A stretch of 64,000 nt of DNA. Source: Saprospiraceae bacterium. GTDB lineage: Bacteria; Bacteroidota; Bacteroidia; Chitinophagales; Saprospiraceae. Below, piece by piece: positions 34,027 to 55,136 of this stretch. The stretch covers positions 1-64,000 of the forward strand of contig BQJU01000022.1 in NCBI GenBank assembly GCA_021604865.1. Direction: 5' to 3'. Every line of letters begins with the position of its first letter. Positions within the stretch are counted from its first letter, which is position 1. Made by a program: the position numbers and the translations under genes. Under the pieces are notes generated by a model, which was not told the DNA's origin, did no database searches, and saw only the letters and a list, made by a program, of their open reading frames with translations.

Positions 34027-34162
34027 ACAGCTCTTCCGAAAGCGGAGGACTACAACATAACTGGGGACGTACTGGAATCGACAGGATCGTTAACTGGTTA
34101 GTAAGCATGCCGGAGCATTCTATTTCACTCCGTTAACAAATGACTAGAAACAATTTTTACAT

Positions 34163-34192
34163 GGCAACAGACAGTTCGCCATGGCTGCCTAA
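34163..34192 (+). other. tmRNA tag reading frame
   Basis: GGC to TAA encodes GNRQFAMAA and stop; with the alanine charged on tmRNA the tag would be AGNRQFAMAA. The C-terminal A-x-AA is the expected recognition end for ClpXP-type proteases. Confidence 0.85.
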
Positions 34193-34424
34193 GACTAGGT
34201 CTTAGAAAGCCTTTGTGCCCCACGCTTGACGCCTAATACACAGCGTGCCGCACATCAACCAACCTTTAGGCTAGCGAAATGACCGGCTCCGATCATTCAG
34301 CGAAATTCAGGAGATAAGGGTCAAGTCGTGGAGGGTTTCCAATCCTGCCTTGATCACGAAAATTCAACTGGAAAATAAGCATGTAGAAAGCTCTCTGGTG
34401 CTTTCGCTGGACGCGAGTTCGACT

Positions 34425-34758
34425 CGAAGGGTCGCCCGTGCGGTGACGTACGGTGAAAAATCGGGTGAATTCAGGGAAGCCTAAGTTCCGAAAATTTCGG
34501 AGTAAGGTAATCCTGAGCCAAGCCAAAGGGAAGACTTTGGAAGGTGCAGAGACTAGGGACACTACGGTGAGCCCACTAGCGCCCGACATCTTGATTAGGG
34601 ATTGTTCAAGAAGATGAATTTGTCAATGTTTAATGTGAACTTGAACAATGAAACACATGAACAGACCTAAAAAGATGATGATATAGTCCGATACCCCGGG
34701 AAACCGGGAGTCAGTGCCAGTGGTATTGATAAGGAGTAAATTTACTCTGAACGTATTG
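34425..34758 (+). ncRNA. Group I intron inside the ssrA T arm
   Basis: A 334-nt self-splicing-type intron without an internal protein gene. The 5' exon ends in U (34424) and the intron ends in G (34758), as group I rules demand. P1: exon CGACU (34420-34424) pairs with GGUCG (34430-34434), with the U-G wobble at the splice site. P3: TCGGGTG (34461-34467) with CGCCCGA (34580-34586). P4: TCAGG (34471) with CCTGA (34512). P5: TCCGAAA/TTTCGGA (34488-34502). P6: CCAAAG/CTTTGG (34523-34540). P7: GACTA in GTGCAGAGACTA (34544-34555) with TAGTC in GATATAGTCC (34680-34689). P8 region: a 10-bp stem at 34601-34610/34640-34649. P9: CCCGG-GAAA-CCGGG (34695-34708). Extra sequence between P7 and the P3 return strand suggests subgroup IA; the subgroup is uncertain. 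Confidence 0.92.
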
Positions 34759-34784
34759 CTCGCCGTCTCCACAAGTTAAAACGC

Positions 34785-34824
34785 AAAGCCCCAATTGGTC
34801 TGTTGATCAGTTGGGGCTTTTGTA
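34785..34824 (+). terminator. Intrinsic terminator of ssrA
   Basis: AAAGCCCCAA at 34785-34794 pairs with TTGGGGCTTT at 34811-34820 across a 16-base loop, followed by TGTATTT. It lies 14 bases after the tmRNA 3' end. Confidence 0.9.
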
Positions 34825-34924
34825 TTTAAAAATATTGGGAAGAAAAATTTTATGTTGAAAAGGTATTCCAGTAAAATAATCTATTGAACGCTTGTATTAA
34901 TTATGTTATGGAAGTCAAACATCT

Positions 34925-54983: not shown

Positions 54984-55012
54984 TCCTATCAATCACTTCA
55001 AGCAAGGATTGG

Positions 55013-55136
55013 TTTTATATAGAAGGGTGGAGAGATCAGGCTCTGTGAAACCCTGGCAACCGCGGAAAAGTATCCAAAAGGTGCCAATTCCTGCCAAGGA
55101 GCATTCCGTATTGGGATGTAATTGGGAATATAAGAT
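55013..55136 (+). promoter_or_regulatory. SAM-I riboswitch (S box)
   Basis: An S-adenosylmethionine aptamer in the leader of metY-metX. The conserved core can be read: GGGTGGAGAGATCAGG from 55025, CTGTGAAACCCTGGCAACCG from 55042, and AAGGTGCCAATTCCTGCC from 55078. P1 is TTATAT (55015-55020) with ATATAA (55128-55133). When SAM is high the riboswitch should lower expression of the downstream methionine genes. The expression platform is not obvious: a U-rich hairpin (AGCAAAA...TTTTTGCT, near 55192-55223) could be a weak terminator. Confidence 0.93.

What the first reader, a model, noticed from the sequence alone, without database searches (positions are those of the whole stretch)
34063..34771. 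Group I intron splits the tmRNA gene in its T arm
The sequence shows a tmRNA whose T arm is cut after TTCGACT (34424), with the 3' strand of the T stem and the acceptor stem 334 bases later (34759). Every group I hallmark can be placed by eye: U at the 5' splice site, G at the intron end, a 5-bp P1 to the exon with a U-G wobble, P3, P4, P5, P6, P7 (GTGCAGAGACTA with GATATAGTCC) and a GAAA-capped P9. Removing the intron restores GCGAG-TTCGACT-CTCGC and a 7-bp acceptor stem with G3-U70. Without splicing the tRNA-like end cannot fold, so ribosome rescue would depend on self-splicing. As far as I recall, group I introns at this tmRNA site have been reported before but are rare; this one has no homing endonuclease.
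Basis: partly seen in the sequence, partly recalled or inferred. Interest (0 to 1): 0.88.

Follow-up and report, generated by a model that had tools for sequence, protein, structure and literature searches.

The report
Self-splicing intron inside tmRNA gene
The only ribosome-rescue RNA (tmRNA) gene found in this bacterium is interrupted by a probably self-splicing group I intron in its tRNA-like end, a rare arrangement that was already described for this bacterial family in 2025.

Summary
Rfam finds a group I intron (93.7 bits, cut-off 50) inside a tmRNA (68.8 bits, cut-off 47). The 334-nt intron 34425-34758 lies between loop base 60 and the 3' T-stem strand. Six intronless genes of the same family read straight through the junction with the same T arm and acceptor. 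The five introns of this type that I found covary in P2, P3, P4, P6a and P9. No second tmRNA above the cut-off was found in the genome, which has SmpB. So rescue by tmRNA very probably needs splicing; splicing itself is inferred.

The kind is known. PMC11915505 (2025) reports 883 intron-form tmRNAs at four T-loop subsites; all at subsite 8, where this one sits, are from Saprospiraceae, the GTDB family of this window.

I add something on origin. Subsite-8 introns group with one Flavobacteriaceae tmRNA intron at subsite 7 (100/99) and, more widely, with Bacteroidota tRNA-Gln(CUG) introns. Intronless relatives mostly carry C59 (78 of 120), leaving U60 as the usable splice-site U. This suggests a one-base displacement rather than an unrelated founding event, but AU tests do not settle it.

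The parts
34063..34424 (+). tmRNA 5' exon: acceptor 5' strand GGGGACG (34063-34069), tag reading frame, pseudoknot region, 5' T-stem strand and the whole T loop TTCGACT
   Evidence: RF00023 68.8 bits over 34071-34426; aligned with six intronless family tmRNAs
34163..34192 (+). tag reading frame GGC...TAA, tag GNRQFAMAA (an Ala charged to the tmRNA would precede it)
   Evidence: the four other intron-bearing genes give GNRSYAMAA, GNTQYAMAA, GNTQYAMAA and GNGSYAMAA
34413..34417 (+). T stem, 5' strand GCGAG; its partner CTCGC lies 341 nt further on, at 34759-34763
34420..34424 (+). exon strand of P1 (CGACU); U34424 is the base before the 5' splice site
   Evidence: unchanged in 5 of 5 sequences
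34425..34758 (+). group I intron, 334 nt, no ORF of 60 aa or more on the plus strand
   Evidence: RF00028 93.7 bits over 34375-34710; fold z -6.1; the ORF listing
34430..34434 (+). internal guide strand of P1 (GGUCG)
34436..34453 (+). P2 hairpin CCGUGC/GUACGG
   Evidence: one pair with changes on both sides; 4 of its 6 pairs are in the minimum-energy fold
34461..34467 (+). P3 5' strand UCGGGUG, pairs with 34580-34586
   Evidence: one C-G/U-A compensatory pair; 7 of 7 pairs in the minimum-energy fold
34471..34516 (+). P4 (34471-34476/34511-34516) and P5 (34479-34482/34505-34508)
   Evidence: one compensatory pair in P4; two P5 pairs each break in one sequence
34518..34544 (+). P6 (34518-34519/34543-34544) and P6a (34523-34528/34535-34540)
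   Evidence: three P6a pairs with changes on both sides; P6 itself is not in the minimum-energy fold
34551..34555 (+). P7 5' strand GACUA, pairs with UAGUC 34684-34688 (guanosine-binding helix)
   Evidence: never varies in the five sequences
34556..34574 (+). extra hairpin between P7 and P3 (P7.1-like): GGG-A-CAC-UACG-GUG-AG-CCC
   Evidence: its pairs never vary; the outer GGG/CCC is not in the minimum-energy fold
34580..34586 (+). P3 3' strand CGCCCGA
34587..34677 (+). P8 (34587-34591/34673-34677) with an extension of about 75 nt that the four other subsite-8 introns lack
   Evidence: alignment A1; structure corrected, counted
34684..34688 (+). P7 3' strand UAGUC
34695..34708 (+). P9 hairpin CCCGG-GAAA-CCGGG
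   Evidence: structure corrected; three pairs with changes on both sides
34758..34758 (+). terminal (omega) G of the intron
   Evidence: 5 of 5 in alignment A1
34759..34771 (+). tmRNA 3' exon: T stem 3' strand CTCGC, acceptor 3' strand CGTCTCC, discriminator A
34785..34820 (+). terminator-like hairpin after the gene, 16 pairs, then TGTATTT
   Evidence: consensus scan, 1 found in 34700-34900, mean 0.3 in shuffles

Best explanation
This is the organism's tmRNA (ssrA) gene in the 'intron form': a group I ribozyme sits between T-loop base 60 and the 3' strand of the T stem (subsite 8 in the published numbering). In the transcript, P1 forms between the exon CGACU and the guide GGUCG. A guanosine bound in P7 attacks after U34424, the freed U attacks after G34758, and the exons join to give GCGAG-TTCGACT-CTCGC with a 7-bp acceptor stem bearing G3-U70. 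The mature RNA can then be charged with alanine, bind SmpB and tag stalled proteins with (A)GNRQFAMAA. Shown: intron and tmRNA homology, splice sites, intronless relatives, conserved pairing, one tmRNA and one SmpB found in the genome. Inferred: the self-splicing chemistry, the need for it in vivo, and the charging and tagging steps.
For: RF00028 93.7 and RF00023 68.8 bits. One tmRNA above cut-off and SmpB 192.8 bits in the genome. Four further family genomes carry the intron at the same base. The junction is matched by six intronless family genes that share TTCGACTCTCGCCGTCTCCA; in three of them the 48 nt before the junction are identical to ours. Of 62 pairs counted over five sequences, 9 change on both sides (shuffle mean 5.2, reached in 1 of 500) and 308 of 310 cells pair. 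Fold z -6.1. The tag frame ends in AMAA in all five genes. A tmRNA intron of Clostridium botulinum is cited as self-splicing in PMC2729099 (passages seen).
Against: No RNA data exist here. ARAGORN calls the four relatives once spliced in silico (two of them with another tag frame) but not ours, even at relaxed thresholds; it also misses two of six intronless relatives, so the miss is weak. Two P5 pairs each break in one sequence. P1, P7, P8 and the P7-P3 hairpin do not vary among the five, so covariation neither confirms nor refutes them. The helix list was partly derived from our own sequence, which inflates pairing percentages. The minimum-energy fold has P3, P4, P5, P6a, P8 and P9 in full but only 4 of 6 pairs of P2 and not P6.
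Confidence: 0.94

Rival explanations
1. Origin, rival A: subsite 8 was founded by a separate insertion of a Bacteroidota tRNA intron (tRNA-Gln(CUG) type), unrelated to any subsite-7 tmRNA intron; the neighbouring subsites are a coincidence of the U-rich T loop.
For: Subsite-8 introns lie in a clade with 18 tRNA-Gln introns (bootstrap 97-100). A tRNA intron of another class of the phylum (L190) scores 98.6 bits with the subsite-8 model, close to the tmRNA introns L160 (108.0) and L148 (116.4). The other subsite-7 introns score at most 40.2 bits.
Against: The subsite-7 intron L148 groups with the subsite-8 introns in every tree that holds it (100/81; 100/99 and 97/83; 100/99) and has the highest model score outside them (116.4; best tRNA-Gln intron 77.9).
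Confidence: 0.45
2. Origin, rival B: subsite-8 introns descend from the common subsite-7 tmRNA introns found in Pseudomonadota, Nitrospirae, Omnitrophota and others, so all tmRNA introns are one lineage.
For: AU tests do not reject one clade of all tmRNA introns (p 0.12), of subsite 8 with all subsite 7 (p 0.32), or of subsite 8 with the subsite-7 set without L148 (p 0.39). Three of the 32 other subsite-7 introns in the first tree (L119, L126, L146; two are Omnitrophota) fall in the clade with subsite 8 and tRNA-Gln (99/99). The guide GGTCG is shared by many, though the exon dictates it.
Against: The remaining 29 fall elsewhere in the free tree. Of 38 other subsite-7 loci searched with the subsite-8 model, 17 match at E 0.1 or better, none above 40.2 bits.
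Confidence: 0.15
3. The intron is a decayed, non-splicing insertion and the gene is dead or spared by other rescue systems.
For: No expression data; tmRNA-independent rescue factors were not searched.
Against: It is the only tmRNA found above cut-off, with SmpB present; exons, tag frame, acceptor stem and catalytic helices are intact, and several helices covary.
Confidence: 0.03
4. The insert is removed by nucleases without ligation, leaving a two-piece tmRNA.
For: Two-piece (permuted) tmRNAs exist (PMC11915505, passages).
Against: The order here is standard, not permuted, and the insert has a complete group I core with the expected U and G at its ends.
Confidence: 0.02

Closest known systems
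Intron-form tmRNA, T-loop subsite 8, Saprospiraceae (PMC11915505, 2025)
   Same: Same gene, same internucleotide position (loop position 8), same family, no homing endonuclease here. The paper says that all subsite-8 cases are from Saprospiraceae.
   Different: Nothing that defines the kind. This one is 334 nt, with a P8 extension absent from the four others that I found (253-284 nt).
Intron-form tmRNA, T-loop subsite 7 (Clostridium botulinum, recalled as the first case; many phyla)
   Same: Group I intron in the T loop with a U before the splice site, a terminal G and a guide that pairs with the same loop bases CGAY.
   Different: The break is one base upstream: base 60 stays with the 3' exon (29 of 40 loci resolved), and base 59 is U rather than C (40 of 40). 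Cores mostly differ (at most 40.2 bits with the subsite-8 model); L148 of Flavobacteriaceae is the exception (116.4).
Group I introns in Bacteroidota tRNA-Gln(CUG) anticodon loops
   Same: Closest tRNA introns within the family: similar P4-P6-P7 sequence and, by eye, an extra hairpin between P7 and P3.
   Different: Different host gene and different P1 and P2; several have long extra sequence.
Group I intron in tRNA-Leu(UAA), present in the same genome (contig C118)
   Same: Group I fold in an RNA gene of the same genome.
   Different: 43.3 bits with RF00028 and 55.3 with the subsite-8 model; an ORF with a weak HNH match inside; by eye no extra P7-P3 hairpin.

Membership tests
Group I catalytic intron (RF00028) | Covariance-model match above the curated cut-off | tested here: met
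   93.7 bits against 50
Group I catalytic intron (RF00028) | P3, P4, P6, P7, P8 core with P3/P7 pseudoknot | tested here: met
   Helices placed, P8 and P9 corrected, counted
Group I catalytic intron (RF00028) | U before the 5' splice site paired with G in P1; G as last intron base | tested here: met
   U34424-G34430 and G34758; 5 of 5 sequences
Group I catalytic intron (RF00028) | Guanosine-initiated self-splicing with exon ligation | not testable with these tools
   Needs RNA; inferred
Intron-form tmRNA, subsite 8, Saprospiraceae | Break between T-loop base 60 and T-stem base 61 | tested here: met
   GCGAG-TTCGACT | CTCGC; six intronless relatives. That position 8 of the paper means this junction is my reading of the legend of its Figure 2; the figure itself is not held
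Intron-form tmRNA, subsite 8, Saprospiraceae | Host in family Saprospiraceae | tested here: met
   Same-family genomes G152 and G020/G199 match the named records 'Saprospiraceae bacterium IP29b_bin.15' and 'Phaeodactylibacter sp.'. The family is GTDB's grouping; NCBI ranks shown put Phaeodactylibacter in Haliscomenobacteraceae. The window's own organism has no name here
tmRNA (RF00023) | Covariance-model match above cut-off | tested here: met
   68.8 bits against 47
tmRNA (RF00023) | Acceptor stem with G3-U70, tag reading frame, SmpB in the genome | tested here: met
tmRNA (RF00023) | ARAGORN tmRNA call on the spliced gene (a program's call, not a defining trait) | tested here: not met
   Not called even at relaxed thresholds; ARAGORN also misses 2 of 6 intronless relatives, so this looks like a limit of the program
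Homing-endonuclease-bearing mobile intron | Endonuclease ORF within the intron | tested here: not met
   No plus-strand ORF of 60 aa or more
Subsite-7 tmRNA intron lineage of other phyla | Shared descent of the intron core | tested here: inconclusive
   The free tree separates subsite 8 from 29 of 32 other subsite-7 introns, but AU tests do not reject joining them

The most novel reading that the evidence does not exclude
T-loop subsites do not equal founding events. In Bacteroidota one intron lineage, kin to tRNA-Gln(CUG) introns, occupies tmRNA subsites 7 (Flavobacteriaceae, L148) and 8 (Saprospiraceae), and perhaps 3 (L160). The step from 7 to 8 is a one-base displacement allowed by the same guide sequence and favoured by C59 in the family's T loop, which leaves U60 as the usable splice-site U, probably through reverse splicing into an intronless tmRNA.
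Probability: 0.4. Interest if true: 0.5.

Novelty: new member of a known kind. Interest (0 to 1): 0.35.

Why it matters
An RNA that frees stalled ribosomes would be made only after a ribozyme excises itself, in a genome where no other tmRNA gene was found above the cut-off. As a kind this is published, so the value is as a clean example with close intronless relatives (one in the same genus as two intron-bearing genomes). It also gives a tractable case of how group I introns may shift between neighbouring insertion sites, and shows that a standard tmRNA finder misses such genes.

Tried and rejected
Tried without use: a class-level pattern for an interrupted T loop found only the window (1 of 395); it needs the loop through TTCGAY and so cannot see subsite 3. 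A subsite-3 pattern in the family of G398 found 0 of 13 and missed the known case L160 because that intron begins with C, so it says nothing. Family of L148: 2 of 299 genomes with any group I match, one of them L148's own.

Rejected: assembly artefact (five genomes); permuted tmRNA; second standard ssrA (one match over cut-off; the ten lower ones, at most 31.9 bits, I took for tRNA-like matches without checking each).

Prediction that failed: after I expected any new high scorer with the subsite-8 model to be a tmRNA intron. The next one (L190, 98.6 bits) lies in a tRNA gene by ARAGORN (anticodon call doubtful), with, by eye, an endonuclease-like stretch upstream, so 'a tmRNA-only Bacteroidota lineage' was dropped. 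L160 (subsite 3) joined the tmRNA introns but not. In some trees L148 falls inside the subsite-8 set rather than beside it (98/86, 96/82 in the first tree); its branch is very long.

Rows dropped: trees left out truncated cores and the three introns L140, L156, L157 with long inserts; L085 had no readable core; L109 and L171, with L148 or L160 in turn, were left out of two trees, and L109 and L171 out; the trees hold no subsite-7 intron but L148. L143 was not given. Five of 102 family introns have no host assigned. One search resolved 29 of 40 subsite-7 3' ends; in the other 11 the locus was truncated or my acceptor search failed or erred.

Changed on checking: three other subsite-7 introns lie in the wider clade; the fold holds P2 only in part and not P6; the tag coordinates were corrected.

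Full report
WHAT IS THERE. The window holds one tmRNA gene broken by one group I intron. Rfam scores Intron_gpI at 93.7 bits (34375-34710) and tmRNA at 68.8 bits (34071-34426), both above their cut-offs. ARAGORN sees nothing in the window. The 5' exon ends GCGAG-TTCGACT at 34424; the 3' exon begins CTCGC-CGTCTCC-A at 34759. The acceptor strands GGGGACG and CGTCTCC pair 7 of 7, with G3-U70. The tag frame 34163-34192 reads GNRQFAMAA; the four other intron-bearing genes read GNRSYAMAA, GNTQYAMAA (twice) and GNGSYAMAA. A terminator-like hairpin follows at 34785-34820.

INTRON ANATOMY. P1 is CGACU (exon) with GGUCG; P2, P3, P4, P5, P6, P6a, P7, an extra hairpin between P7 and P3, P8 and a GAAA-capped P9 follow. 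The intron alone folds 6.1 standard deviations below the mean of 100 shuffles; the minimum-energy fold has all pairs of P3, P4, P5, P6a, P8 and P9, 4 of 6 of P2, 3 of 6 of the extra hairpin and none of P6 (P1 needs the exon and P7 crosses P3, so neither can appear in it). On an alignment of the five subsite-8 introns, 308 of 310 cells pair, 9 of 62 pairs change on both sides (shuffle mean 5.2, reached in 1 of 500), and sliding the partners by one to three columns gives at most 41.9% paired. Part of the pairing percentage is built in, since helices were read from these sequences; the compensatory changes are not. P1, P7, P8 and the extra hairpin do not vary, which says nothing either way. The 75-nt P8 extension is peculiar to the window among the five. 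There is no plus-strand ORF of 60 aa or more in the intron.

SPLICE SITES. Six intronless tmRNAs of the same family run through the junction as TTCGACT-CTCGC-CGTCTCC-A and align end to end with the five genes after in-silico removal of the intron. In G008, G072 and G164 the 48 nt up to the junction are identical to ours. U before and G at the end of the intron fit the usual rule.

THE GENOME. The host assembly (7.97 Mb, 161 contigs, estimated 100% complete) has one tmRNA match over the cut-off, one SmpB (192.8 bits) and two group I introns. The second, on contig C118, lies in tRNA-Leu(UAA) and carries an ORF with a weak HNH match (E 0.0015, 19.1 bits, below the 21.4 cut-off). No other genome of the genus is held.

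DISTRIBUTION. Of 398 family genomes, 75 have a group I match. Of 102 intron loci examined, 5 are in tmRNA, all at this site; 92 are in tRNA genes by ARAGORN; 5 are unassigned. In a sample of the class, 17 of 395 genomes have one, two of them from this family. One of the class hits, L160, is a tmRNA intron at subsite 3: GAGGG-TT | ... | CGATC-CCCTC. A scan of named genomes gave 44 hits, by eye all interrupted T loops: 4 at subsite 8 (Bacteroidia bin Co_bin.344, Saprospiraceae IP29b_bin.15, Phaeodactylibacter mag.15 and mag.14) and 40 at subsite 7, 24 of these from Gammaproteobacteria by record title; the pattern demands particular bases after the loop and so misses some. Three of the four subsite-8 records are identical over the whole fetched locus to the family loci, and the fourth shares a 1,944-nt identical run. 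Intron presence is patchy: G125, of the same genus as intron-bearing G020 and G199, lacks it.

WHAT IS KNOWN. PMC11915505 (abstract, passages and the first of two parts of section 12 seen) lists 883 intron-form tmRNAs, all in the T loop, at subsites 2, 3, 7 and 8; all at subsite 8 are from Saprospiraceae, all at 3 from Bacteroidia, and 36 of 883 carry an endonuclease. The window's intron falls in the subsite-8 class, taking its position 8 as the junction between loop base 60 and the stem (my reading of a figure legend). PMC2729099 (passages) cites a tmRNA intron of C. botulinum as self-splicing. A search for 'group I intron' with 'Saprospiraceae' gave two papers, PMC11915505 and one on lichens seen only in the listing.

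ORIGIN. The 2025 paper suggests multiple founding events. In trees of intron cores the five subsite-8 introns group with the subsite-7 intron L148 of a Flavobacteriaceae bin (100/81; 100/99 and, without L160, 97/83; 100/99) and, with L160, L190 and 18 tRNA-Gln(CUG) introns, form one clade (100/99). In the tree that also holds the other subsite-7 introns, 3 of those 32 (L119, L126, L146) fall in the same wider clade (99/99) and 29 do not. A covariance model of the subsite-8 cores gives L148 116.4 bits, L160 108.0, L190 (a tRNA intron of another class) 98.6, the best tRNA-Gln intron 77.9, and the best of 38 other subsite-7 tmRNA introns 40.2. Against a firm conclusion: AU tests do not reject one clade of all tmRNA introns (p 0.12) or of subsite 8 with the other subsite-7 introns (p 0.39); L148 and L160 are single sequences on long branches; L160's place moves between trees; the bootstraps had mostly not settled. 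L148 was the only intron above cut-off among 299 genomes sampled from its family, so it may be a horizontal arrival or a binning error.

WHY SUBSITE 8. At subsite 7 base 59 is U and base 60 belongs to the 3' exon (29 of 40 loci resolved). In this family, intronless T loops are TTCGACT in 78 of 120 genes from the 117 of 248 genomes that matched the pattern (the pattern requires TTCGANT and one upstream motif, so other forms are not counted). With C59 the guide GGUCG still pairs with CGAC, and the required U-G pair can form only with U60. The same guide in the same register then puts the splice site one base further on. This is inference from sequence.

VERDICT. It is a good example of a published kind, not a new kind; the origin of subsite 8 is the one open point that these data sharpen.

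Noticed in passing
Own genome contig C118:15846-16048:- (L010): tRNA-Leu(UAA) gene split by a second group I intron (43.3 bits) that carries a 153-aa ORF with a weak HNH endonuclease match.
   Followed up: partly
L014, L016, L018, L019, L021, L023, L024, L027, L029, L036, L038, L050, L051, L056, L058 (family); L162, L164, L167 (class): Group I introns in tRNA-Gln(CUG) anticodon loops, 18 loci in this sample. The 2014 review of bacterial group I introns (PMC3984707) holds no 'Gln' in its text (find only).
   Followed up: partly
Family of the window, 398 genomes: Group I introns are common: 75 of 398 genomes, against 17 of 395 in a sample of the whole class and 2 of 299 in the family of L148.
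   Followed up: partly
L160 (G398:C2), minus strand, about 1490-1730: tmRNA intron at T-loop subsite 3 in a family of the class other than the window's.
   Followed up: partly
L156 and L157 (bacterium DBS2-5.bin57; Omnitrophota): Subsite-7 tmRNA introns over 600 nt; L156 encodes a LAGLIDADG_3 endonuclease stretch (25.5 bits). L157 and L140, also over 600 nt, were not scanned.
   Followed up: partly
L175 (G493:C55:76-482): Group I match (37.1 bits, below cut-off) that looks by eye to lie in a 23S rRNA gene.
   Followed up: no
Genomes G107, G177, G246: Two tmRNA-like pattern matches each, in G246 about 540 bases apart, in the T-loop survey.
   Followed up: no
window 55012-55136 +: SAM riboswitch, 75.5 bits.
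   Followed up: no
L120, about 800 nt after the T loop: A second tmRNA-like 3' end with GATT-CCCGC context lies downstream of the intron-bearing gene, as integration of a genomic island at ssrA might leave.
   Followed up: no
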